A DNA stretch of 64,000 nt from Sphingobium sp. (GTDB lineage Bacteria > Pseudomonadota > Alphaproteobacteria > Sphingomonadales > Sphingomonadaceae): contig JAGIAZ010000004.1 of the NCBI GenBank assembly GCA_017744605.1, positions 62,001 through 126,000 of the forward strand, written 5' to 3'. Position 1 is the first letter of the stretch. Each line of letters opens with the position of its first letter. The position numbers and the translations under genes were made by a program. Of this stretch, positions 24,573 through 63,327 are shown piece by piece. The notes below the pieces were generated by a model. That model was not told the DNA's origin. It did not search any database and saw only the letters and a program-made list of their open reading frames with translations.

Positions 24573-24976
24573 CGATCCTGCTCCGTTGCTCCAAGCGTCC
24601 GCTTGCCCGCTGCAACCTGGCGGCCGACCTGCATGACGAAGGCTTCGAAGCGCTTGGCGGCGACCGCGCGGCCTGCCTGGTCATTTTCGGCAAGCGGTGC
24701 CTGGATCGACAGCTCGAAACGGATGAACAGCGCCAGCGTCTCGAGGATGACGTCTTCGTCACGCTCGATCCGCGACAGGGTCGTCGATATGCGATCGAGC
24801 CGCAGCCCGAAGCGATCGTCGAGTTCGGACGTGCCCCGGCGATTGAGCCAGGCAGTCATCGCATCGGCCAGAATGGCCGACTTGGACGCGCCGGGCTTCG
24901 CGGCGAGTGCCTCGAGCCGGTCGCTGAGCGGCTTGGCCAGGAAAAGCTGGTGGCGGACTTTCTCGACCATGATCAA
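24569..24976 (-). CDS. CopG-family ribbon-helix-helix regulator
   Basis: HQLFLAKPLSDRLEALAAKPGASKSAILADAMTAWLNRRG; standard position between traG and trbB. Confidence 0.8.
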   Translation of the reverse strand: MIMVEKVRHQLFLAKPLSDRLEALAAKPGASKSAILADAMTAWLNRRGTSELDDRFGLRLDRISTTLSRIERDEDVILETLALFIRFELSIQAPLAENDQAGRAVAAKRFEAFVMQVGRQVAAGKRTLGATEQDR

Positions 24977-26154
24977 AAGTCCAGCTGAAGATCGTCGGGC
25001 CGCGCCGACCCGGAATCGATCGCGTAGACCGTGCGCGTGGCGGCCTGGGCCTGATCCATCGCACGCTTGTCGGCAGCGGTGTCGCTGTCATCCTCGCCAA
25101 GGCCGAGAACGTCCGCCGGCGTCAGATCGACTGGCGCGGCCTGGTCCACCTCATGTGCGGGATGACGAACCTGCTCGAGGCCACCGGTCGTTTCTTCGCG
25201 GGTCTCATCGGCCACAGTTCCAAGGCGTGCATCAATGCCGCGGACATGACCCTGCCAGTCGTCGGGGCGCGCCTTCGGCAAATCAGCGTAGGCCTCACCG
25301 CCGAGCGCCGGGGCGGCCAGAATGCGGGCCTTGAAGGTGCGATCCTCGTAATAGCGCAGCTTCTTCGCGCGGACCGGGGCATGGCCGGCGACAAAGACCA
25401 GTTCGTCGGTCGGCGGCAATTGCATGACCTCACCGGGCGTCAGCAGCGCGCGGGCGGTCTCCTGGCGGCTGACCATGACGTGCGCGAGCCAGGGTGCAAG
25501 CCGGTGTCCGGCATAGTTGCGCATGGCGCGTTGTTCGGTCGCGGTGCCCAACGCATCCGAAATACGCTTGGCAGTCCGCTCGTCGTTGGTCGCAAAGGCG
25601 ACGCGGACATGGCAGTTGTCGAGGATGGCGTTGTGTTCGCCATAGGCCTTCTCGATCTGGTTGAGGCTTTGGGCGATGAGGAAGGCGCGGACGCCGTAGC
25701 CGGCAAGGAAGGCCAGGCTGGTCTCGAAGAAATCGAGGCGGCCGAGGAAGACACCTCCATTGGAGAAGAGATCGGCGGCACCCGCTTCCCGAACCGATGC
25801 CCAGTGCGCCGACCCGTATGTGGTGACGTTTCGGCGCTGGCGCGCGCGCCAGAGCGAACCGGCCACTGCCGCGCCGCATCCCACGAAGCCGCTGGCACCG
25901 GCGATTGCACCTGCGCGATCGAAGACATGCGGCGCGTAGGCGTCAAAGTGATACCACCACAGGAAGATCGCCCAGGGCCGGTAGACAGGAATACCGTCGA
26001 TCAATGCCCAGGGTGAGCCGAGCTCAGGCTGGTAGGCGAGTGCGGCGGCCGCCCATTGCGTCGCGAACCAGATGCCCGCGAGGATGATCGCGAACACGAC
26101 GGCTATTTGGCCGATCAGGAGCTTGGTGGGTGTCATGCGGGTCTCCGGCCGCAC
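24973..26154 (-). pseudogene. traG: TraG/VirD4-type coupling protein with internal in-frame deletion of the ATPase core
   Basis: N-terminal TMs and ...YGSAHWASVREAGAADLFSNGGVFLGR joined directly to LDFFETSLAFLAGYGVRAFLIAQSLNQIEKAYG; no Walker A or Walker B in the 393-aa product. Confidence 0.82.
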
Positions 26155-26372
26155 CGCGTCTGTCGGTAGGGCTCGAGCGCTAGGGTCGACCTTTCCGCCG
26201 ATTCTGGTCAGGCACTACCTAGGGACGTGAAGTGCATGTCAGGGGAATCTCGGCCCCCTCATCTCCCGATTTGGTCCGCTCCGGCGAAATCTACTTCGAT
26301 TTATCTTGCAGTGTCTGAGACCTAGAGATGTTATAGCTTCGGTGATCCGACCAGCATTCGATCAGGGGCTCG

Positions 26373-27611
26373 ATGACGGTGGCGGTCGAAGGGGGCCATG
26401 TGGAGGACGAAGAGACTGAGGGGTTCGACAACGCGGACAATGATGAGGGGGCGGAGGAAGACGAGGACGATCTTCTTGATCTGATCCCTCCCGAAGATGA
26501 CCGTGATCCCGACGAACTCGCGAACATCGTTCGCCCGGAACTGATAGCCAAGGCGTTCAAGGCGTTGGCCGCCGACGCGCAGCGCGCCGGCGGCCTCCTG
26601 TCGCGTGACGATGCGAACCGTGCCTATCTGCGGCGGGAGCTCTCGATCGCAGAGCGTATCGAGGTCGAAGGGAAGCTCGCAGCCGCCGGATACCGGATCA
26701 GCGAAGATGAGGATGAGGAGGATGAGGCGAAGGACGGCTCGGTCACGGTCAATCGCCGCAAATTCCGTTATCTCAGTCACAACGAGGAGCGCGAGCTAGG
26801 GAGGCGTATCCAGCTCGCGCAGAACCTTCCCGCGGACACGACCGGGTTGCCTGCCGACTACATCGACCGAATCAGACGGGACGCGGACAAGGCGAAGGCC
26901 ACTTTCGTCGCGGGGAACATCCGCTACGTGCAGATGCTGGCACGGCGCCATGGTCAAAAGAAGCACCTCACCCTCGAAGACCTGATCCAAGAAGGAATGA
27001 TCGGACTTCTCCGGGCGACCGACCTGTTCGATCCGGAGCGTGGTTTCCGCTTCAAGACCTACGCGACGTGGTGGATCGAACAACGGATGCAGAGAGCCAT
27101 CGCCGATGACGACCGATTGGTTCGACTGCCGGTGTACCTTCACGACACGGTGAAGCGTGTGAAGCGGGCAGAAGCCAGGTTGACGCTCGCGACGGGTACT
27201 GCACCCACACCCGACCAATTGGCGAACGCCATCGGGATGAATCCCGAACGCCTGCAGAAACTGCTTTGGCGTGTCCAGGCAACGGAGGTGATCGAGGGTG
27301 ATTCTCCTGTTGGGGAAGACACGACAATCTTGGCGCTCGCGCCGGATTCTTCCGACTCAGCGTTTGAGATCGCCTCACATCAGGAACTGCAGGAACGCTT
27401 CCGCGGTGTCCTTGCGACACTGACACCGCGAGAGGAACGGATCGTCAGGATGCGGTTCGGGATCGGCTTGGACCAAGGCCACACGCTCGAGAGCATAGGG
27501 GGAGAGTACAACGTGACCCGCGAGCGCATCCGTCAAATCGAGGCGAAGGCGCTCGGAAAGCTCAGACATCCAACGCGGAGCAAGAAGCTTCGCGGTTTCC
27601 TCGAGTCCTGA
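26373..27611 (+). CDS. sigma-70 family RNA polymerase sigma factor
   Basis: Region 2 (LIQEGMIGLLRATDLFDPERGFRFKTYATWWIEQRMQRAI), regions 3-4 (LTPREERIVRMRFGIG...LESIGGEYNVTRERIRQIEAKALGKLRHP); acidic N-terminus. Confidence 0.92.
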   Translation: MTVAVEGGHVEDEETEGFDNADNDEGAEEDEDDLLDLIPPEDDRDPDELANIVRPELIAKAFKALAADAQRAGGLLSRDDANRAYLRRELSIAERIEVEGKLAAAGYRISEDEDEEDEAKDGSVTVNRRKFRYLSHNEERELGRRIQLAQNLPADTTGLPADYIDRIRRDADKAKATFVAGNIRYVQMLARRHGQKKHLTLEDLIQEGMIGLLRATDLFDPERGFRFKTYATWWIEQRMQRAIADDDRLVRLPVYLHDTVKRVKRAEARLTLATGTAPTPDQLANAIGMNPERLQKLLWRVQATEVIEGDSPVGEDTTILALAPDSSDSAFEIASHQELQERFRGVLATLTPREERIVRMRFGIGLDQGHTLESIGGEYNVTRERIRQIEAKALGKLRHPTRSKKLRGFLES

Positions 27612-27612
27612 G

Positions 27613-29220
27613 ATGGCTGAATATATCGGACTGGGGGCGGATGACCCTGCTGAGGACTCCGAACGCAGGGTCGCTGCCGCTTTCCGTCGGCTTCCCGATG
27701 GCTGGGTCGTCTTGCATCACGTCAGCTGGCAATCGAAGCGCGGAGGACGCCAAGGCGATGGCGAGGCGGATTTCATTGTCTTCCACCCTAGGAAGGGCAT
27801 GATCGTCGTCGAAGTGAAAGGCGGTGGGATCGAGATCGATCGCGGACGTTGGATTTCCACGGATAGGTTTGGCGGGCGTCACGAGATCAAGAATCCATTC
27901 GAGCAAGCGACCGCCTCGAAGCACGCGCTGATCGGCTGGCTGGCGGAACGAGGCCTTGGTTCGCGTGTCCGTGTGGGACACGCGGTGGCGTTCCCACACA
28001 TGGAGACTCTCCCCTACCTTGGCCCGGCCGGTCAAAAGGCCATCACGCTGACCAAGCCCGACCTCGCCACGGTTGATCAGGCCATCGCACGGTGCCTCGC
28101 CCACTGGAGCCTGGATGGCAGCATGTCAGCTAAAGACGTCCAGAAGACGGTCGAAATGCTCGCGCCAACGATCTCCGCAGCACCGACACTTTCGAGCGCA
28201 AGCGCGGATGCCGAAGCCAACCTCGTCATCTTCACAGCAGAACAGATCGAGGCGTTTTCGAGATTGCGCAGCCACCGCGGGGGGCTCATCACTGGCGGCG
28301 CGGGAACCGGGAAAACGGTGCTTGCCGTCGCGCGGGCGCAGCAACTGGCCAAAGATGGATTCCGCACCCTGCTTGTCTGTTACAACGAGCTTCTTGGAAG
28401 CGAACTCACCAACCGGCTCAGCGATCCGCCGAACATCAAAGCATGTACCTTCCATTCGCTTTGCCTTCACGAGGCTCGTCGCGCCCGACTTCCGATTCCA
28501 ACCTCCAAGCCTCCGGTATGGTGGGAGAATGACGCCCCCAATCTCCTCGTCGACGCATGCTCGCTCAACGAAACGACTTATGACGCAATCGTGGTCGATG
28601 AGGGGCAGGACTTCTCGCCAGTTTGGCTGGACGCCCTTCGATGCCTGACCCAAGGCAGCACCGACCCGCCATTCTTCGTGTTCGCCGATCCGCTTCAGGA
28701 TATCTGGAAACGCGACTGGGACCGAAACGGAGACTATGCGTTCACGTGGCAACTGTCACGGAACATGCGGAACACCCAGCCGATTGCGCTACGCGTCGCA
28801 TCCGCGGTCGGCACTACGTGTGATGGCCGGGGCATTCCGGGGCCAGCACCGATCTGGAAGACCTGCGATGGCCCCGCCAAGGAGAAGGACGTCGTCGCAG
28901 CCGTTGAACACCTACTCGATGAAGGCTTTGGGCCGACCAACCTGGTCGTTTTGTGCGGTTCCGCGGCATTGGCGAGCCGGCTGCGCGAGCGCTCCATTGG
29001 GGCCTTCTCGTTCGGAAGCTGGGGAAGTCGCGGAATCCCAGTGGAGACGGTCAACCGATTCAAAGGGCTTGAATCACAGGCTATCGCTTTTGTGATCGAT
29101 GGACCACCGGGCCCAGACGATCAAACGGCGGCCTATGTCGGCATGAGCCGCGCCCGGAGTGTCCTTGTTGTGGTCGGGAGCGACACAGCGCAGCCTGGCC
29201 TCAACTGGGGGACGAAGTGA
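27613..29220 (+). CDS. NERD-domain plus UvrD-like SF1 helicase/nuclease
   Basis: GDGEADFIVFHPRKGMIVVEVKGGG (NERD nuclease), GGAGTGKTVLAVARA, VVDEGQDF, TVNRFKGLESQAI, AYVGMSRAR. Confidence 0.9.
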   Translation: MAEYIGLGADDPAEDSERRVAAAFRRLPDGWVVLHHVSWQSKRGGRQGDGEADFIVFHPRKGMIVVEVKGGGIEIDRGRWISTDRFGGRHEIKNPFEQATASKHALIGWLAERGLGSRVRVGHAVAFPHMETLPYLGPAGQKAITLTKPDLATVDQAIARCLAHWSLDGSMSAKDVQKTVEMLAPTISAAPTLSSASADAEANLVIFTAEQIEAFSRLRSHRGGLITGGAGTGKTVLAVARAQQLAKDGFRTLLVCYNELLGSELTNRLSDPPNIKACTFHSLCLHEARRARLPIPTSKPPVWWENDAPNLLVDACSLNETTYDAIVVDEGQDFSPVWLDALRCLTQGSTDPPFFVFADPLQDIWKRDWDRNGDYAFTWQLSRNMRNTQPIALRVASAVGTTCDGRGIPGPAPIWKTCDGPAKEKDVVAAVEHLLDEGFGPTNLVVLCGSAALASRLRERSIGAFSFGSWGSRGIPVETVNRFKGLESQAIAFVIDGPPGPDDQTAAYVGMSRARSVLVVVGSDTAQPGLNWGTK

Positions 29221-30922
29221 TATCGAAGTAGCCCGAGCCGCCCGCCAGCGCGCGACGGGACAGTTTGGTGTTGAACATGCGACACGACGGTTCACCGAGG
29301 TGAAGGCACACGGCACAAGCTGCACCGGTGTCTTCGCAACCTGGATCGAGTGCGCACCGATGTTCGTCATCGACAAGCCCGTCTAGCAGCTGATCGAGAT
29401 CTGACTCGAACAGTGCCTGGAGACCCCCGAGGACGAAATCGCCCCGGGCTGCTGCGTAGACGAAGAACGAGAGCCCCATGGGCAGAACGACCTCGGAGAG
29501 CGCGTTGCGGTCAATGCCTGCGAAGACAGCTGCGCGCTTGATGAACGCATGGGAGTAGGAATGTACTAACTCAACCACCTTCTCCGTGGCGTCGTTGGGA
29601 CGATCCATGGGGGACATGGCAGATAGGATGGCTTCAGCGGCAGACCGGGTGTCGGCCTGCCGATTCAAGCCGATACCTTGGCGCACGAGCCAACCGTGAA
29701 CGGTTCGCGGATCGAGGCGGATGAGCAACGCTTCTGTCTGCGCGAGATCGCCGTAGACGATGTATTCACCGGATTTCTCGCGATAGGCCCGCAGCCGGCT
29801 CTCACCTGGGTTCGGCTTTCCACGGGTATAGCCGAACTGCCCGGTCAGGACCGGGAACCTGTCGATCAATTCGACGCGTTCGATGCCCGCTCGCGTCAAG
29901 GCGCGGCTGTATTCGATCTCATAGCGGTTCCGCAGCGCTTCCGTACTCGACTGACCCAGAAGGTCCGCGACGGTGATGCGGCTCTCGAACGTGGCCAAAG
30001 CGATCTGCTTAGCTTGCCGCTCCGCATCTGCCCGCAGCCCAGGATCGAGAGTGAGCGATTTCGGAGCAGCTGGTCCGGCGGCCGGCATCGCCGCGAGCAT
30101 GGCTTCTATCGTGGTATCGTCGAATCCGCGATCCTCCAGCAATTTCCGGATCGACGCGGGATTTTGAGCAGCCGCTGATTCCGTGAGGCGCCGCCCGACC
30201 ATTCCCTCGAGAACCCATTCAAGGGCCCGTTCCCCACCGCCGGCTTGCTCGATCCGTGCCAGTATCTCGCGACGCGGCGGATTGATCATGCTGATGCCGC
30301 GCGGCTTGAAGACCGTGCCGGACCGATGAACAGTGAACGAGAGGACACCACCTTGAGCGCAGTCGCAGGATGCTGTGAAACCGCGATGGATCACGTCATT
30401 GTTCGGCGGACATTCCGGACAGAAGAAAATCAGCTCGGCGGCCGATGCCGTGCCGGGGAAGCGGACCGCGCGCTGCCCATGTGTCGGGCATTTGCGGACA
30501 TAGGGCGTCTTTATCGCGCCGCAGGCCTCGTGATATCCCACGAATGGCAACTGTCCCCGGCGACCGGTGGCACCGCATTTGCATCCGCCCATCGCTTCAT
30601 CGTGAAGTCGCTTGCAACGCTGGCACATGTAGAGCCTGGGGAATGGCTCGCAGAAAACGCCTTCTTCCCGGTTGAGCGCGCGGACGCGGACCGGGCGTTG
30701 CGCCAACAGATCGTCGACGAACCCGCCATCCTGCGGCGGATTCGCGTCGCGCCATGGATATGCTGCTCTGACCAGTTCGTCCCGGAGGGCGCCGGTATCG
30801 ATGGCCGAGACGGATGACGGATCGATCCACTTCTTGACCTTCCAGACACCGCCGTCGGCATCGACGGTCTGCTCCGGAAGGTGCCCGAAGAGTATCTGCG
30901 AGCCGCTGCGATATTCCCTCAT
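29201..30922 (-). CDS. drmB-like: DUF1998 protein, DISARM DrmB-like
   Basis: Cys clusters (CQRCKRLHD..CKCG, CPTHG, CPECPP); HSYSHAFIKRAAVFAGIDRNALSEVVLPMG; CALDPGCEDTGAACAVCLHLGEPSCRMFN. Confidence 0.82.
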   Translation of the reverse strand: MREYRSGSQILFGHLPEQTVDADGGVWKVKKWIDPSSVSAIDTGALRDELVRAAYPWRDANPPQDGGFVDDLLAQRPVRVRALNREEGVFCEPFPRLYMCQRCKRLHDEAMGGCKCGATGRRGQLPFVGYHEACGAIKTPYVRKCPTHGQRAVRFPGTASAAELIFFCPECPPNNDVIHRGFTASCDCAQGGVLSFTVHRSGTVFKPRGISMINPPRREILARIEQAGGGERALEWVLEGMVGRRLTESAAAQNPASIRKLLEDRGFDDTTIEAMLAAMPAAGPAAPKSLTLDPGLRADAERQAKQIALATFESRITVADLLGQSSTEALRNRYEIEYSRALTRAGIERVELIDRFPVLTGQFGYTRGKPNPGESRLRAYREKSGEYIVYGDLAQTEALLIRLDPRTVHGWLVRQGIGLNRQADTRSAAEAILSAMSPMDRPNDATEKVVELVHSYSHAFIKRAAVFAGIDRNALSEVVLPMGLSFFVYAAARGDFVLGGLQALFESDLDQLLDGLVDDEHRCALDPGCEDTGAACAVCLHLGEPSCRMFNTKLSRRALAGGSGYFDITSSPS

Positions 30923-33900
30923 AGGGTGCTGTTCCCCTTGAGAGGTGCTTGTTCCTCGACATCGCGAAGGGACGTCATCGGTGAACCTGTAGGTGAGGCG
31001 TCCGAGGGAAACCTGGCGTCCGCCGGGGGCTCTCGGAGGTTGCGCGCGAAGCCCTCGAACCAGGTGTGGAGCTGGACTCGCATGAATTCATCGTCATCGT
31101 TGATGCCGATATCCGAAGCTATCGAGCGTTCGTCGTCCGACAACGCATCCGGATGAGTCTGGGCGAACCGGTTCAGGTCGCGGATCGTGGTGATCCGTCC
31201 GCCTGATGCCGGCTCGTGGATCATGTTGATCCGCGCGAGCTCGAGGCCGGAGATGGTACGTTCCAGCACACGTCTGCTTTTTCGGGTGATCGGGATCGGC
31301 TCGACGAAACGATCGCCATGCGAAACGAACTCGGGGAAAGCGCGGTAGACGCTGGCGTCCCGTTCACGGGTCATCTTCGGTATGACGATGACGAGGGCCG
31401 GCCATTTACGGCCGACACGCGCAGTGGCTTGGATGAATTCGGCCACACCCAAGGGAAGCGCCAACATCACCATGATGTTGAGCCTGTCGATGTCGACGCC
31501 ATGCGACATCATGGATGACGCCGCGATGAGGTGGAGACGATCCTCATAGCGTCCTTCCGGCGTCTCCAGTCGGTCGAGCGTCCGCTTGACCTCTTCGAAA
31601 TTGACGCGGCCGGTCAGCGTCGCGACATTCGGTGGCGGATCAAGCTCGGCGTACTGCGTCTCAGACGACCGCACGACCGCGTCTATGTCTTGGAGCGTGT
31701 TGCCGTAGACGACGTTCGTTCCGTAGAGGTCCTGCAGAAAGGGAGCGTAGCGGACGTCGATGTCGAGCTCGGCACAAAGCGTTTCCGCGGTCGCGCTCCC
31801 GAGCCGCTGCACTGCCCGCTGGAGTGTTACGATCAGCCGATCGACGACGAACTCGACGGTCAGCCGTCGCGGGGCCAGCGCAACATAGCGCCGCATCAAT
31901 TGTCCGGAATCCGAAGCCCAGAAACCCTGACCGTCCACCGGAGGAGGTTGAGGGAAGACGCGGGCGGTACGACGATAGAGCACGTCTGCCTGCTTCTCGT
32001 AACCGGAGAGCGTCGCCGACGAGGCGAGAATCTTGGGTCGCTTGCCGGTCAAGCTCTCTTGGATGCCGTCAAGAGCACATTCATAATGTGCATCGACTGC
32101 GCCGAGGCTGTCCCGCAACAAGTGGAGCTCGTCCTGGAGACGGAAGCTGGCTGGGTAGTGATGATCCGCCATGGGAAGTGGCCCCGGTGGACCACCCGGA
32201 CAATCGGGAACAAAGCAACCGTTCGGGAAAGAGCTGCGCGTTGCATAGGTGTACCCGTGTCCATCGATACGGCATTTTCCCGCGGGGCTTGCCAGCAGAC
32301 CCCGCATGCCGGTCTGACGCGATATGTTCGCTGCCTTGTCCAGTGTCCCGATGACGATGGTCGGAAGGAACCTCCAGATTTCGTCATCTATGACGTGGAT
32401 CGGGAGCGGCTCTCCGGCGATAGGGCAAGCGTCATTCGAGCAGCGGTGATCAAGCCTCCACAGGACCCGATCGAACTCGGTGCCGACCGTGCGCTGGCGG
32501 CAGAAGGGGCACCGATCGAGAAGCAGGTACGGATTGGTCTTATCGTCCAGCGCATCCGCGTCGACCCCGCGATGGGCCGCGTCCTTCAGGATACGATTCG
32601 GCGTCGCGGCGCCACCAACGAGGAATCCGAGCGAGAATGGGTCACCGCCGATCGCGGCTTCCCGGCGGACCAGTTCCGCTGCCGCCAAGGCGTTTGCGAA
32701 GCGTTGGGTCTGTTGGAGCGACAGCAGGCGTAGCGGAAATCTCGACCAGGCAGTGACCCCGGAGATTTTCCCCTTCATCCGATCAAGGAAGGCTGCGGTG
32801 AGCAGCAGGCCGAGATAGGTCTCGGTCTTGCCGCCGCCGGTGGCAAACCAAACGATATCGACGATGCCGCTCTCACTAGTCGGGTCGGTGAGGCAATTCA
32901 GATTGGCCAGTAGGAACGCCAACTGAAAGGGGCGCCATTCTGCATACTTGCCAGCAGCCGAAATTCGCATGGCGCCGTTCATGAGCTTGAATGCTTCACG
33001 CAGCTCACGGTTCTGCGAAAGGAGATCGACACCGTTCCGAACCCGTTGCAGCTCCGCTCGGAACTGCGCTTGCGCTTCCTGGGCCTCGTCTCCCATGTTC
33101 TCCGACCACCCCTCCGTTTCGGAGCGGTTCCGCAATGTCGTATCCGACCAGACGTCGGTCGACCACGCTTCGAATGCGCTCAGCAGTTCCCGGGCTGTCG
33201 GAAGGGGATCGGCGGCGAGGGCTGCGAAGCTCACATCCGGCTTTGGAAGCTGGGAGGCCCAAAACGCAGGCCGCTCCTTGGAATAACCCGGGCCGTCGCT
33301 CGTTCTGATCTCCGGCCCATCCATCGAGAACCCGCAGTTGATGCCGTAAGCGTCGACGCGCCGATCGTAGCGGAAGCTGTCGGGTAGGCTCTCGAGGGCG
33401 AATGGAAGGCGGGCCAACCCGCGCACCGTAAGGCTGGCCTCGAAGAAACGCCCATCGGCAAAGTCCGTGACCTCTTGGCTCGTGTTAACGAATGTGATCT
33501 CGAAGGCCCGCGAAGCCGGATTTCTACCGGTGATCCTAACCCTGACTTCACCGCTCAGGCCGGGCGAACCCGCAGCCTGCAGTGCATCAGAGATTTCCTT
33601 TGCGCCAAAAATCTGGTCCCCGGCGATGTCCCGGACCGCGACGCCTACGGTGACCTCGACCGGCTCGCTCTTCTCCCACGCCCACCGCAGACCGGTGCCT
33701 TCTTCTGCCCGCCGTCGGCTCCACAAGTTGCAGCGAACGTCGACTTCGAACGCCGGCGGATATTCTTCTGTCGGACGAAGACGTAGCCCGATGGCGCACG
33801 GTTCGAGGCGATCCTGCCGCTCATCCGGCCGCGTGACGAAGTCCTTGGGTCCGAGACGGCCAAGCCAGAAGCGGCCGGTTGGATCGGTCTGGGAGAATGT

Positions 33901-34017
33901 CTCCTCGTCGCCGCGGGCTTCTATGACGACACGGGTCTCCAGCCGCGTGACAAAACGCTGGGCGGCTTCGTACCGTTCAGCGTCCCCGTCTGGGCCGTCG
34001 ATCCAAGGCAGTGTCAT
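30919..34017 (-). CDS. drmA-like: DISARM DrmA-like SF2 helicase
   Basis: WFATGGGKTETYLGLLL (motif I), FRLQDELHLLRDSLG (motif II), ILASSATLSGYEKQADVLYRR (motif III), MMSHGVDIDRLNIMVMLALPLGVAEFIQATARVGR (motifs V/VI). Confidence 0.85.
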   Translation of the reverse strand: MTLPWIDGPDGDAERYEAAQRFVTRLETRVVIEARGDEETFSQTDPTGRFWLGRLGPKDFVTRPDERQDRLEPCAIGLRLRPTEEYPPAFEVDVRCNLWSRRRAEEGTGLRWAWEKSEPVEVTVGVAVRDIAGDQIFGAKEISDALQAAGSPGLSGEVRVRITGRNPASRAFEITFVNTSQEVTDFADGRFFEASLTVRGLARLPFALESLPDSFRYDRRVDAYGINCGFSMDGPEIRTSDGPGYSKERPAFWASQLPKPDVSFAALAADPLPTARELLSAFEAWSTDVWSDTTLRNRSETEGWSENMGDEAQEAQAQFRAELQRVRNGVDLLSQNRELREAFKLMNGAMRISAAGKYAEWRPFQLAFLLANLNCLTDPTSESGIVDIVWFATGGGKTETYLGLLLTAAFLDRMKGKISGVTAWSRFPLRLLSLQQTQRFANALAAAELVRREAAIGGDPFSLGFLVGGAATPNRILKDAAHRGVDADALDDKTNPYLLLDRCPFCRQRTVGTEFDRVLWRLDHRCSNDACPIAGEPLPIHVIDDEIWRFLPTIVIGTLDKAANISRQTGMRGLLASPAGKCRIDGHGYTYATRSSFPNGCFVPDCPGGPPGPLPMADHHYPASFRLQDELHLLRDSLGAVDAHYECALDGIQESLTGKRPKILASSATLSGYEKQADVLYRRTARVFPQPPPVDGQGFWASDSGQLMRRYVALAPRRLTVEFVVDRLIVTLQRAVQRLGSATAETLCAELDIDVRYAPFLQDLYGTNVVYGNTLQDIDAVVRSSETQYAELDPPPNVATLTGRVNFEEVKRTLDRLETPEGRYEDRLHLIAASSMMSHGVDIDRLNIMVMLALPLGVAEFIQATARVGRKWPALVIVIPKMTRERDASVYRAFPEFVSHGDRFVEPIPITRKSRRVLERTISGLELARINMIHEPASGGRITTIRDLNRFAQTHPDALSDDERSIASDIGINDDDEFMRVQLHTWFEGFARNLREPPADARFPSDASPTGSPMTSLRDVEEQAPLKGNSTL

Positions 34018-34056
34018 CTTGATCCCCTGTCGGTCAGTCGATGGCCGAGTAACCGA

Positions 34057-34479
34057 CTATGGTTTAGTGATGCGGAGCGGTCCAAGGAAATCGCAAAGCC
34101 GTCTCTCGAGAGCCTCAGAATCCTTGAGTTCGCATTCCCAGACGACCAGCACCTGCCATCCTTGGGCGCGAGCGGCCGCCTCGAGCCTCGCGTCACGCTC
34201 CCTTGCGAATTTGGCCTGCCAGAACTCCTGCCGCGTCGTCGGTATCCTGAAGGCTGGACAATCCTGATGGGCGTGCCAGAAACAACCATGGACTTGCACG
34301 ATCTTCCGGCGCCGGGGGAAGGCGACATCGGGTCGCCCCGGAACACCTTTCAACTGGACCGTGAAGCGGTAGCCAATGGCATGCAGCAGCCTCCGCACGA
34401 TCAACTCAGGTTTGGTGTCCGATCTCCGGATTTGTGACATCACGGCGCTGCGCTGTTCAGGCGTTAGAGTATCGACCAT
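34057..34479 (-). CDS. vsr: very short patch repair (Vsr) endonuclease
   Basis: MVDTLTPEQRSAVMSQIRRSDTKPELIVRRLLHAIGYRF...VQVHGCFWHAHQDCPAFRIPTTRQEFWQAKF. Confidence 0.95.
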   Translation of the reverse strand: MVDTLTPEQRSAVMSQIRRSDTKPELIVRRLLHAIGYRFTVQLKGVPGRPDVAFPRRRKIVQVHGCFWHAHQDCPAFRIPTTRQEFWQAKFARERDARLEAAARAQGWQVLVVWECELKDSEALERRLCDFLGPLRITKP

Positions 34480-34517
34480 CCCTCACATATGGGAGCGGTT
34501 GTTCTGGAACATACGAC

Positions 34518-36182
34518 TCAACCTGCCGCACGGAACTCCTGTTCGAGACTGCGCTGGGCATGTGCTCGGAGCAGTGGGTTGACCGTGGACCCGACAAGCA
34601 AACCAGCAAGAATTGTCTCAGCGTTCCTTGAGAGTTTGCCGAGCCCGGGCAACGATGAAGCCGCCGCTCCGTGCTGATACCGGATGATCGATTCGATAAT
34701 CTTGGGCGCTTCTTCGGCATGAGCTTCGATCGCGGTCATTAACGACGATCCGAAATCGTCCAGCATGTCCAGCAACATGAAAGGCCGGATTCCGCCTGGC
34801 CCTTGATGCGTCCAGACGGTTTGCATGTTCGCGATATCCGCGTCCTCGACGAAACGGCTGAGCTGCTCGAGGACCGGATTGACCGCCTTCTGCAGGGCGG
34901 AACTGACCTCGAGACTGAGGCGCCCCCGGATGCCTTCATCCAACACGATCGAGTGGATCGCCTTAGACGTGCCGAAATAGAAGGACACTCGCCAGTCCAC
35001 CACCGCTCCCGAGCAATCATTATCAAGCTCGAACCGAACGCCGCTCTTCAACTGCAAGCTGGGTATCGCGAACTTGAACGTCCGGTTGGCGGGATAACGC
35101 GCGCCAGCCCGGTCCGGGGGAGTCTCGGCAGGTATCGGTTTTGGACGCTTGAGTTCTCGAGAAGCCTCGCGAAGGGACGGGCTTGCCTCTGCTCCACATC
35201 CCTGCAACACCCTGCCCATCAGGAATGAGAAGGCCGGTGGCACGGCGTTCCCGATCATCCGCAGCTTCTGACCGTAGTTCGCGCCGTAGAACTGGAACGT
35301 GATAGGAAAGCCTTGCAGGCAAGCCCTCTCGCGCAACGTGAGGCGCCGGTACGCCTGATCCTGCTCGGGGGCGGCGATCACGATGCTTTCGCGCGACACG
35401 CGGGTGCACGTTGCGGTGATCGTCCGGACCGTCCTATCCATAGGATCAGGAAAGGGCATGGCATTGTAGACCGTGTGGGTCATCTTGTTGGCCCGGTTGA
35501 TCCTCACTTCCTCGGAGCTCAACAAATCCTCTTCGACATGGTCGATCAGATCGGCGCGTTCGAGTTGAAGACCGTAGATCGGGTCGATAATCTGCTCTGC
35601 GCCAAGCGCCTTGACGACGTCGCCCAGAGTCGGGGCATCGCTTCCGGGTTTGAAGGACTCCAGCAAGCCGATATCGAAATTACCAGCGATGCACCGTCGT
35701 CGACGCTGCGGGATTCCATACTCCGCCATGTCCACCACGTGGGTGACACAGCCGAGATGCGCGAAGTCAGCTAGCGCACCGCCCAGCTTCATCTCCTTCT
35801 CTATGATCTTCGCGACGCGGGGCACGTTCTCCATGGCCCACATCCGCGGCTTGAGGTGGTCGACGATCGACAGGAAACGGATGATATCCTTCAAGCCGTC
35901 GGCGAGATCCCCGCCACCGCCTCGGTTGCTGAATGAGAACTGAGTACAGGGAGGACTTCCGACCACGATATCGATGTCTGTGGGAAGATCCTCGAGCGCT
36001 AGGCGCCGGATGTCGACGGTCTGCGCTTGGTGGGCGTTGTTCTTGAAGTTCGTCTCGTTGGCTGGCCCCCAGATTTCATAGGAGGCAACCACGTCGACTC
36101 CGGCCAAGCGAAGACCGAGCGACCATCCGCCGACGCCGGAATAAAGATCGATCGCCCTTGGTTTATTCTGATGCTTCGGCAC
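34518..36182 (-). CDS. DNA (cytosine-5) methyltransferase, DISARM class 2 DrmMII candidate, with ~200-aa C-terminal extension
   Basis: AIDLYSGVGGWSLGL, GSPPCTQFSFSNRGG, AMENVPRV, YGIPQRRRRCIAG, GNAVPP; GTG start at 36182 or ATG at 36257. Confidence 0.9.
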   Translation of the reverse strand: MPKHQNKPRAIDLYSGVGGWSLGLRLAGVDVVASYEIWGPANETNFKNNAHQAQTVDIRRLALEDLPTDIDIVVGSPPCTQFSFSNRGGGGDLADGLKDIIRFLSIVDHLKPRMWAMENVPRVAKIIEKEMKLGGALADFAHLGCVTHVVDMAEYGIPQRRRRCIAGNFDIGLLESFKPGSDAPTLGDVVKALGAEQIIDPIYGLQLERADLIDHVEEDLLSSEEVRINRANKMTHTVYNAMPFPDPMDRTVRTITATCTRVSRESIVIAAPEQDQAYRRLTLRERACLQGFPITFQFYGANYGQKLRMIGNAVPPAFSFLMGRVLQGCGAEASPSLREASRELKRPKPIPAETPPDRAGARYPANRTFKFAIPSLQLKSGVRFELDNDCSGAVVDWRVSFYFGTSKAIHSIVLDEGIRGRLSLEVSSALQKAVNPVLEQLSRFVEDADIANMQTVWTHQGPGGIRPFMLLDMLDDFGSSLMTAIEAHAEEAPKIIESIIRYQHGAAASSLPGLGKLSRNAETILAGLLVGSTVNPLLRAHAQRSLEQEFRAAG

Positions 36183-36275
36183 GCTACCACCCCGTTTGCT
36201 TGTGCGTGCTCCTCCTTGAATAGATCCTTTGCCGGTTTGGCAAGATCCTTTCGGCATCTGGGCTAAAAAACGCCC

Positions 36276-61841: not shown

Positions 61842-63074
61842 TCACGCCGACCGCTGCCCGCCGAAGTTTGGCTTCAAGACCTTTGCGCCATTGCGAAGGC
61901 GGTCGAGTTCATCGGACCAGAATTGCATCATCGCGACCCGCTCGTCCCAGTATTCGCCGCGCGTGTAGGCGCGACGGACACCGTTGGTTTCCATATGGGC
62001 AAGCTGGCGTTCGATCGCATCTGGATGGAAGCGCCCGGTTTCGTTCAGCAAGGTGGCCGCCATGGCGCGAAAACCGTGCGCGGTCATCTGATCCTGACTG
62101 AAGCCGAGCGCCCGCAGCGCTGCGTTGACCGTATTTTCCGATATCGGGCGCGCGCCTGAACGGAAGGACGGGAAGCAATATTTGCCTTGGCCAGTCAATT
62201 CCCAGAGCTGCTCGAAAAGCTCGAGTACCTGGGTGGACAGCGGCACCCGGTGCGGCCGGCGCATCTTCATCTTGTCGGCCGGGATGTTCCAGACCGACTG
62301 CTCGAAGTCGAACTCGGCCCACTCCGCCTGACGCAACTCGCCGGGACGGACGAACAAATGGGCTGAGAGACGCAAGGCAAACAGCGTGATCGCATGGCCC
62401 GTATAGCCCTCGATCGCGCGCATGAGCTCTCCGGCGCCCTTGGCCGTGGTGATTGCTGCTAGGTGCTTTGCCTTGGGAACAATGAGCGCGCCGCGAAGGT
62501 CGCTGGCTGGATCGCGCTCTGCCCGCGTCGTCGCGACCGCGTAGCGGAACACGCGGCTCAGGACGCTGCGCATCCGGCGGGCGCTTTCGTAGCGGCCGGT
62601 CGCTTCGACGGCCCGCAGGACGGCCAGGACCTCCTGCGCCGTGATTTTGGCGACGGGCCTATTGCCGATCTTGGGATAGGCCTTGTCGAGCAGCCAGCGG
62701 ATCTTGCTCAGTGTGATCTCGGCCATGCCCTCGCGCTCGTTCTTCGCAATCCACTCCTTGGCGACGGTCCTGAACGTGTGGTTCTCGTCGACCCGTGCCT
62801 TGGCCGCATCCACTTTCTGCTGATGGGATGGATCGATGCCGGCGGCCAGCAGGCGGCGCGCCTCGTCCCTTCGCGCGCGCGCATCAGCAAGGCTCACCGC
62901 CGGCCATGCCCCGAAAGCGAGCGTCCGGCCTTTTTCGAGATAGCGATAGTTGAGGCGCCAGAGCTTCGCGCCGTTGGGCCGCACGAGAAGATAGAGACCG
63001 CCGCCGTCCGACAGCTTATAGTCCTTGGCCTGCGGTTTGGCGTTGGTGACGGTCGTGGCGAAAAGGGTGCTCAT
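61842..63074 (-). CDS. int: tyrosine-type site-specific integrase (P4-like, DUF4102)
   Basis: DGGGLYLLVRPNGAKLWRLNYRYLEKGRTLAFGAWPAVSLADARARRDEARRLLAAGIDP; catalytic ...LFVRPGELRQAEW, HRVPLS, AHGFRAMAATLLNE...QLAHMETN. Confidence 0.95.
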   Translation of the reverse strand: MSTLFATTVTNAKPQAKDYKLSDGGGLYLLVRPNGAKLWRLNYRYLEKGRTLAFGAWPAVSLADARARRDEARRLLAAGIDPSHQQKVDAAKARVDENHTFRTVAKEWIAKNEREGMAEITLSKIRWLLDKAYPKIGNRPVAKITAQEVLAVLRAVEATGRYESARRMRSVLSRVFRYAVATTRAERDPASDLRGALIVPKAKHLAAITTAKGAGELMRAIEGYTGHAITLFALRLSAHLFVRPGELRQAEWAEFDFEQSVWNIPADKMKMRRPHRVPLSTQVLELFEQLWELTGQGKYCFPSFRSGARPISENTVNAALRALGFSQDQMTAHGFRAMAATLLNETGRFHPDAIERQLAHMETNGVRRAYTRGEYWDERVAMMQFWSDELDRLRNGAKVLKPNFGGQRSA

Positions 63075-63182
63075 GAGGGTATCGTCCCTTTGAAAGGGAG
63101 GAGAACGATACCCTCGGATATACCCTCATTGTTCCCGATTGGTGCCGTATCCGCCCGGATTTGACCGGACGGTAATAGCACA

Positions 63183-63208
63183 AAAAACGGCTGAAATCAG
63201 CCGTTTTT
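63183..63208. terminator. 12-bp perfect hairpin with T-run, between int and tRNA-Leu
   Basis: AAAAACGGCTGA-AA-TCAGCCGTTTTT. Confidence 0.75.
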
Positions 63209-63240
63209 CGGACGTTCTCGGATGTCCCCGGAAGAACAAA

Positions 63241-63327
63241 TGGTGCCCAGAAGAGGACTCGAACCTCCACGACCTTGCGATCGCCAGCACCTGAAGCTGG
63301 TGCGTCTACCAATTCCGCCATCTGGGC
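63241..63327 (-). tRNA. tRNA-Leu(CAG), CCA encoded
   Basis: Reverse complement GCCCAGATGGCGGAATTGGTAGACGC...CCAGC-TTCAGGT-GCTGG...GGTTCGAGTCC...TCTGGGC-A-CCA folds as a cloverleaf with a long variable arm. Confidence 0.96.
63248..63263. repeat. att core, tRNA-proximal copy (CAGAAGAGGACTCGAA)
   Basis: Identical to 12137-12152; lies in the tRNA T-arm/acceptor 3' half. Confidence 0.85.

What the first reader, a model, noticed from the sequence alone, without database searches (positions are those of the whole stretch)
26373..36182. DISARM-like defence cassette without drmC, combined with Vsr, a NERD-SF1 helicase and a sigma factor
Seen directly: a minus-strand operon C5-MTase -> Vsr -> DrmA-like helicase -> DrmB/DUF1998 (gaps of ~38 nt, then ATGA overlap), facing a plus-strand pair sigma-70 -> NERD/UvrD-like helicase. 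Established: DISARM is defined by drmA, drmB, drmC (phospholipase D-like) plus a methylase, with DrmMII a 5mC enzyme. Here no PLD gene is visible; the possible nuclease functions are NERD and Vsr. Inference: a DISARM variant in which the NERD-SF1 protein takes the place of DrmC and Vsr limits damage from 5mC deamination, or a separate system built on the DrmA/DrmB module.
Basis: partly seen in the sequence, partly recalled or inferred. Interest (0 to 1): 0.85.

Follow-up and report, generated by a model that had tools for sequence, protein, structure and literature searches.

The report
DISARM-related defence cassette with dedicated sigma factor
A mobile DNA element carries a phage-defence-like gene set built on the DISARM DrmA/DrmB helicase pair but with its own transcription (sigma) factor and, instead of the usual DISARM nuclease, a different nuclease-helicase; the same core recurs in dozens of bacteria of at least five phyla, so it looks like a distinct, undescribed branch of the DISARM family.

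Summary
The six genes are real, intact and correctly placed. DrmA and DrmB are true DISARM homologues by sequence, and DrmB also by fold. They score far below the curated DISARM cut-offs, and no drmC, drmD or drmE lies beside them, so the locus is DISARM-related, not DISARM.

The set is not a chance assembly. In 57 relatives, a sigma-70 gene lies beside drmAB in 45, against 0 of 25 other DISARM-type loci. Its divergence tracks DrmA almost as closely as DrmB does (r=0.93 vs 0.96). It forms one family apart from host sigma factors. The nuclease slot varies: NERD-SF1 helicase in 22 relatives, DrmC-like PLD in 9 (almost always without sigma), DrmD/DrmMI-like genes in actinobacteria. Vsr is common but optional; the C5 methylase is near-universal but swapped.

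The sigma's MzaA resemblance is only general RpoD similarity.

The cassette is cargo in the rlxS-traG interval of an integrative conjugative element. Best reading: a DISARM-like restriction system under a dedicated sigma factor, analogous to C-protein control. Mechanism is inferred; nothing was tested experimentally.

The parts
26373..27611 (+). sigma-70 family factor (412 aa): RpoD-like regions 2-4 with an acidic N-terminal extension
   Evidence: -35 recognition helix residues R584/E585/R588/Q589 kept in at least 44 of 45 family members, TYATWW melting motif and Q437/R441 kept, T440 position variable (Q here)
27613..29220 (+). NERD nuclease domain fused to SF1 (UvrD-like) helicase, 535 aa; candidate effector nuclease
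   Evidence: NERD D-ExK residues (D53, E67, K69) and helicase motif I lysine kept in 21 of 21 alignable homologues
29201..30922 (-). DrmB-like protein with C-terminal zinc-binding DUF1998 region, 573 aa
   Evidence: PADLOC DrmB 4.8e-32; AlphaFold2 model pLDDT 85, best PDB fold match DrmB 7s9v_B E=1e-12, next MrfA; five Cys kept in at least 55 of 56
30919..34017 (-). DrmA-like SF2 (YprA family) helicase, 1032 aa
   Evidence: NF038325 363 bits (cut-off 950); PDB DrmA 7s9v_A 7e-56; motifs I, II, III, VI invariant in 56 of 56
34057..34479 (-). Vsr-type endonuclease, 140 aa; facultative component
   Evidence: (TIGR00632 129 bits, above cut-off), 46, 100: D51, C66, W68, H69 invariant in 36 of 36
34518..36182 (-). 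C5-cytosine DNA methyltransferase with a ~190-residue C-terminal extension; probable GTG start at 36182 (longest ORF runs to 36257)
   Evidence: PF00145 138 bits; PC, ENV and GN motifs invariant or nearly so in 49 homologues; only ~26% identical to MTases of the other sub-clades
36216..36251 (-). conserved element just upstream of the MTase start: direct repeat AAAGGATCTTGCCAA / AAAGGATCTATTCAA, 21 bp apart; probable promoter/operator of the MTase operon
   Evidence: conserved at the same place in L024, L025 and L026 although the surrounding non-coding DNA is not; function inferred

Best explanation
A mobile restriction-type defence system related to, but distinct from, DISARM. Its constant core is a dedicated sigma-70 factor plus the DrmA/DrmB helicase complex. 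Shown by sequence: the parts, their conserved catalytic residues, recurrence, and co-divergence of sigma, DrmA, DrmB and NERD. Inferred: the C5-MTase marks host DNA; DrmAB, as in DISARM, loads on unmodified DNA with exposed single strand and translocates; the NERD-SF1 protein (here and in other Pseudomonadota and Myxococcota) degrades the DNA in place of DrmC; Vsr, where present, mends T:G mismatches left by 5mC deamination. The sigma factor, which keeps RNA-polymerase and promoter recognition features, is most likely the switch that turns on transcription of the restriction genes separately from, and later than, the methylase, playing the part that C proteins play in type II R-M systems. That delay would let the mobile element enter a new host safely.
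For: Homology and intact motifs. Recurrence: sigma beside drmAB in 45 of 57 relatives; in 44 of 45 assessable loci without PLD (three contigs end too early). Sigma in 0 of 25 DISARM-type loci outside the clade; the clade has 55 rows, support 100. Distance correlations with DrmA: DrmB 0.96, sigma 0.93, NERD 0.90, Vsr 0.81, C5-MTase 0.71; sigma 0.94 and 0.95 within Pseudomonadota and Actinomycetota taken alone. System sigmas separate from host RpoD/RpoS/HrdB-type sigmas (the two 'host' rows inside the group are identical to system sigmas). Sigma keeps promoter-binding residues. In most loci sigma is the gene directly before drmA, overlapping or nearly touching, while the C5-MTase is often divergent (e.g. 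L036, L040, L041, L047, L070), which is the C-R/M layout. Conserved promoter-like elements precede the sigma-drmAB operon in actinobacteria and the MTase operon in the window group. NERD-SF1 helicases beside drmAB in a second DrmA branch.
Against: No experiment shows defence. No motif was found that would tie this sigma to a given promoter: the window's sigma and MTase upstream regions share no clear common element. In L071 sigma is gone but the upstream element and drmAB remain, so the sigma is not strictly needed to keep the locus, unless that copy is dead. In the window group sigma sits with NERD, not in the drmAB operon. The PLD sub-clade does without sigma. DrmC is reported dispensable in DISARM (PMC9142583), so a substitute nuclease is not a logical need.
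Confidence: 0.6

Rival explanations
1. The sigma factor acts in recognition rather than regulation: it guides or loads DrmAB on promoter bubbles of invading DNA, or senses phage takeover of RNA polymerase (anti-sigma proteins), so that the system fires when host transcription is hijacked.
For: Sigma co-diverges with DrmA almost as closely as the complex partner DrmB, more than expected of a pure regulator; the T440-equivalent (-12 contact) is variable while the -35 helix is fixed; DrmAB of DISARM binds DNA with single-stranded 5' overhangs (PMC9142583).
Against: No direct evidence of contact between sigma and DrmAB; the PLD sub-clade and L071 keep drmAB without sigma; tight linkage alone also gives co-divergence.
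Confidence: 0.15
2. An ordinary or decaying DISARM locus that lost drmC; the sigma-NERD pair and Vsr are unrelated neighbours in a defence island.
For: DrmA and DrmB match DISARM models; published DISARM operons often lack drmC (PMC9142583).
Against: Sigma and NERD recur with drmAB across phyla and co-diverge with DrmA; DrmA lies in a separate clade; all motifs intact.
Confidence: 0.06
3. The sigma-drmAB core works without NERD; NERD-SF1 is an accessory or stand-alone defence module that travels with some copies.
For: NERD is found in 22 of 57 relatives only; actinobacterial copies have DrmD/DrmMI-like genes instead; NERD-SF1 proteins also exist away from drmAB (L100).
Against: Where present it abuts drmB or sigma and tracks DrmA within Pseudomonadota at r=0.97 over 17 loci; NERD active site invariant; beside drmAB in a second DrmA branch.
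Confidence: 0.2
4. Not phage defence but element maintenance: the cassette serves the conjugative element by excluding competing plasmids or elements or by post-segregational effects of the R-M type.
For: It is cargo between rlxS and traG of an integrative conjugative element with tyrosine integrase and tRNA-Leu; congeneric elements carry other methylase or helicase cargo there.
Against: Copies also lie on plasmids and on prophage-like viral contigs, so no single element type is served; the two roles are not exclusive.
Confidence: 0.1

Closest known systems
DISARM (class 1: drmA, B, C, D, MI; class 2: drmA, B, C, E, MII)
   Same: DrmA SF2 helicase and separate DrmB with C-terminal DUF1998 as adjacent genes; C5-MTase (the DrmMII activity); same fold for DrmB
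   Different: no DrmC, DrmD or DrmE; sigma factor, NERD-SF1 and Vsr instead; DrmA ~300 aa shorter than the Serratia protein and in its own clade; below curated cut-offs
DrmAB + NERD-SF1 + UvrD-helicase loci (Rhizobium rhizogenes pC6.5c, Azospirillum ramasamyi, R. ruizarguesonis, Rhodococcus opacus pROB02); I found no published name
   Same: drmA-drmB with an adjacent NERD-SF1 helicase, often C5-MTase and Vsr, no PLD found
   Different: separate DrmA branch, no sigma factor, often an extra UvrD-type helicase
ARMADA, BRIGADE, TALON, Druantia, Dpd (YprA-family systems, PMC12458937)
   Same: YprA-type helicase; Vsr or NERD nucleases occur in ARMADA and TALON
   Different: there OB-CON-DUF1998 is fused to the helicase and the Vsr domain in ARMADA is fused too; none is described with a sigma factor
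MZA (MzaA sigma factor)
   Same: a defence system that names a sigma-70 protein as a part
   Different: P0001 scores 260 of 800 bits, less than ordinary RpoD proteins (about 450-510 bits) to the same model, so the match is generic
C-protein controlled type II restriction-modification systems (own knowledge)
   Same: layout: regulator gene directly before, overlapping or nearly touching, the restriction genes, methylase often divergent
   Different: regulator is a sigma factor, not a small helix-turn-helix protein; regulation not shown here

Membership tests
DISARM | DrmA helicase | tested here: inconclusive
   clear homologue (PADLOC 3.6e-101, PDB 7s9v_A 7e-56), but 363 bits against the curated cut-off of 950
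DISARM | DrmB (DUF1998) | tested here: inconclusive
   homologue by profile and fold, 57.6 bits against cut-off 240
DISARM | DrmC phospholipase-D nuclease | tested here: not met
   none in the cassette; genome-wide only PLD proteins below the DrmC cut-off, away from the locus
DISARM | methyltransferase DrmMI or DrmMII | tested here: inconclusive
   active-looking C5-MTase, but generic MTase_II models score higher than DrmMII (153 vs 86 bits)
DISARM | DrmD (class 1) or DrmE (class 2), required by PADLOC definitions (PMC9252829) | tested here: not met
   no such gene among the neighbours scanned
MZA | MzaA above curated cut-off, with its partner genes | tested here: not met
   260 of 800 bits; housekeeping RpoD scores about 450-510; none of the six genes matches another MZA model
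ARMADA | YprA helicase with fused DUF1998 and C-terminal Vsr domain, with BrxHII and PglX homologues | tested here: not met
   DrmA and DrmB separate, Vsr a separate gene, no BrxHII or PglX among the window genes scanned
sigma-DrmAB clade (defined here) | sigma-70 gene beside drmA-drmB of the clade | tested here: met
any of these as phage defence | protection against phage | not testable with these tools
   needs an infection assay

The most novel reading that the evidence does not exclude
A sigma factor is a working component of a restriction machine: it joins or guides the DrmAB complex to promoters or open DNA of the invader, or fires the system when phage proteins seize the host polymerase, so that transcription start sites rather than sequence motifs become the target.
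Probability: 0.13. Interest if true: 0.9.

Novelty: new variant of a known kind. Interest (0 to 1): 0.64.

Why it matters
How DISARM destroys DNA is unsettled: DrmC is dispensable and often missing (PMC9142583). This clade and a second DrmA branch offer a concrete candidate for the missing nuclease, a NERD-SF1 nuclease-helicase. The clade also offers a sigma factor that is inherited with the helicase core across at least five phyla. I found no paper in the library that describes a sigma factor in a DISARM-type system (many subscription papers are not held). It makes two questions testable with single-gene deletions: what cuts in DrmAB systems, and why a restriction system needs its own sigma factor. 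Current DISARM definitions, which demand DrmC with DrmD or DrmE, would miss all or most of these loci.

Tried and rejected
MzaA/MZA kinship of the sigma: rejected, since the same model scores ordinary RpoD proteins higher. Vsr as a fixed component: rejected, absent in the nearest relatives. A shared promoter motif upstream of both sigma and MTase in the window group: not found. An SOS box in the window: the alphaproteobacterial GTTC-N7-GTTC pattern gave no hit in window 16001-46000. Function of the MTase C-terminal extension: the AlphaFold2 model was poor (pLDDT 59, six sequences), so I did not search folds with it. The first distance-correlation run left out the window by a sorting slip and was repeated. 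Paper search for 'MzaA' returned only unrelated papers. Iyer 2008 MORC/paraMORC R-M systems also combine SF2 helicase, C5-MTase and Vsr, but with GHKL ATPases and no sigma factor; none of the six proteins matched a GHKL ATPase in Pfam.

Full report
What is there. The window holds two facing transcription units: sigma-70 (26373-27611) and NERD-SF1 helicase (27613-29220) on the plus strand, and C5-MTase (34518-36182), Vsr (34057-34479), DrmA (30919-34017) and DrmB (29201-30922) on the minus strand. The MTase most likely starts at GTG 36182, because related proteins begin there.

What the proteins are. DrmA: PADLOC DrmA 3.6e-101, NF038325 363 bits (cut-off 950), PDB DrmA 7s9v_A 7e-56. DrmB: PADLOC DrmB 4.8e-32 over the C-terminal part, NF038324 57.6 bits (cut-off 240); a 29-member profile finds PDB DrmB 7s9v_B, and an AlphaFold2 model (pLDDT 85) finds DrmB as the only significant PDB fold, with MrfA second. 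The sigma has regions 2, 3 and 4. The NERD protein joins a NERD nuclease to an SF1 helicase. Vsr and the C5-MTase pass curated cut-offs. Catalytic motifs are kept throughout the family: DrmA motifs I, II, III and VI in 56 of 56, NERD D-ExK in 21 of 21, Vsr D51/H69 in 36 of 36, MTase PC and E of ENV in 49 of 49, DrmB cysteines in at least 55 of 56.

Recurrence. A scan of 84,980 species genomes with a three-member DrmA alignment gave 53 loci; viral and plasmid collections added a few. The scan relied on two short DrmA patterns, so it is a lower bound, and the family looks rare. I annotated the flanks with iterated profiles built from the window's genes and from PLD proteins of DISARM loci. Of 57 relatives, sigma lies beside drmAB in 45, NERD-SF1 in 22 and PLD in 9. 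In the wider one search count over 58 loci that includes the window, C5-MTase is found in 50 and Vsr in 37. Of 48 loci without PLD, three contigs end too early to judge; 44 of the other 45 have sigma, and the exception is L071. Sigma and PLD are together only in L076. The PLD loci form one sub-clade, so this near-exclusion rests on very few events.

A separate clade. In a DrmA tree of 80 rows (quick method, SH-aLRT only, several long outgroup branches) the window falls in a 55-row clade with support 100 on a long stem. None of the 25 rows outside has the sigma gene. Outside lie class 1 DISARM (drmD, MI), archaeal and cyanobacterial PLD loci with C5-MTase or DrmE, and a branch in which a NERD-SF1 helicase adjoins drmAB, often with a UvrD-type helicase, C5-MTase and Vsr. 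NERD beside drmAB thus occurs in two branches of the DrmA tree in which most members show no PLD.

Co-inheritance. Pairwise divergence of DrmA correlates with that of DrmB (0.96, 56 loci), sigma (0.93, 45), NERD (0.90, 22), Vsr (0.81, 36) and C5-MTase (0.71, 49); within Pseudomonadota and Actinomycetota alone sigma gives 0.94 and 0.95. System sigmas group apart from 25 host sigmas (RpoD-, RpoS- and HrdB-type) taken from 14 carrier genomes; the branch has support 94, and the two rows labelled 'host' inside the group are the system sigmas themselves. The methylase is the most exchanged part: window-type MTases have a C-terminal extension and share about 26% identity with those of other sub-clades.

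The sigma factor. Its best relatives of known structure are RpoD/SigA. Across 45 members the -35 helix residues (E. coli R584, E585, R588, Q589), Q437 and R441 are kept in at least 44, while the T440 position varies (Q here, often E in others). This points to a working sigma with a changed -10 preference; that last step is inference. NCBIfam and PADLOC call it MzaA-like, but the same model scores ordinary RpoD proteins at about 450-510 bits against 260 here, so the MZA link is void.

Regulatory DNA. In actinobacteria a composite element lies just before sigma: a GAAC-N4-GTTC palindrome (in about half of the fourteen loci aligned, one with a mismatch) about 13 bp upstream of TTGTCG-N11-TACGMT. 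All seven exact matches of the second half in 1.2 Mb lie at this place; in L071, which has no sigma, the element stands directly before drmA. The palindrome resembles the core of actinobacterial SOS boxes (own knowledge). In the window group a 21-bp-spaced direct repeat lies just upstream of the MTase (36216-36251) and is kept in L024-L026. In many loci sigma directly precedes drmA and the MTase is divergent, the arrangement of C-protein controlled restriction systems; hence the best explanation.

Other modules. Thirteen actinobacterial loci carry a DrmD-like helicase and a large DrmMI/type IIG-like methylase next to the cassette, or at least the first of the two. The nuclease or accessory slot therefore varies: NERD-SF1, PLD, or DrmD plus methylase, on a constant sigma-drmAB core.

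Genomic setting. The window is an integrative conjugative element: tRNA-Leu and a tyrosine integrase at 61842-63327, a ParB-like protein, RlxS relaxase directly upstream of the MTase, and TraG, TrbE, TrbJ, TrbL and TrbI on the other side. In related elements of the same genus the rlxS-traG interval holds other cargo of 5.6 to more than 14 kb, including C5-MTases and restriction-type helicases. The window's TraG lacks about 283 internal residues that the related TraG proteins have.

Mechanism and limits. DISARM's DrmAB is an ATPase that binds DNA with 5' single-stranded overhangs and is less active on 5mC DNA; DrmC did not co-purify and is dispensable (PMC9142583). Transfer of that mechanism to this clade is inference from homology. 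DrmA here is about 300 residues shorter than the Serratia protein; whether it has the trigger loop was not tested. No defence activity has been shown for any member.

Verdict. Against the definitions used by PADLOC (PMC9252829) the locus is not DISARM. I class it as a new variant of a known kind: a sigma-linked DrmAB clade related to DISARM.

Noticed in passing
24973-26154 (-): TraG-like coupling protein lacks about 283 internal residues compared with TraG of L033 and of related elements; the element may be unable to transfer by itself.
   Followed up: partly
26155-36275 (rlxS to traG interval): In congeneric conjugative elements (L173-L178) the same interval carries other cargo (C5-MTases, type IV or HamB-like helicases), so it looks like a defence-cargo hotspot.
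   Followed up: partly
L036, L039, L041, L044, L045, L047, L049, L067, L071: GAAC-N4-GTTC palindrome, like the core of an actinobacterial SOS box (one mismatch in L041), about 13 bp before a TTGTCG-N11-TACGMT-like element upstream of sigma-drmAB; would suggest damage-inducible expression.
   Followed up: partly
L071 9876-9932: Salinispora oceanensis copy has lost sigma, leaving the upstream element directly before drmA: a natural sigma-less variant.
   Followed up: no
L023/L078, 637-6613: sigma-drmA-drmB on a prophage-like viral contig with a tape-measure gene a few kb away: defence cargo of a phage.
   Followed up: no
L016, 7184-17764: Burkholderia aenigmatica plasmid copy keeps the window's gene order but is decayed: MTase and drmA frames broken, drmB split by IS3.
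   Followed up: no
L040 14991-22627 and other actinobacterial loci: DrmD-like helicase and a 1576-aa type IIG/DrmMI-like methylase next to sigma-drmAB and C5-MTase, with Vsr in most: possible composite of two modification systems.
   Followed up: partly
L058, L061, L062, L066 (upstream of drmA): a ~730-860 aa protein without any PADLOC or NCBIfam match precedes drmA in the PLD sub-clade.
   Followed up: no
34518-35100 (-): ~190-residue C-terminal extension of the C5-MTase, conserved in the window sub-clade only, no known domain found.
   Followed up: partly
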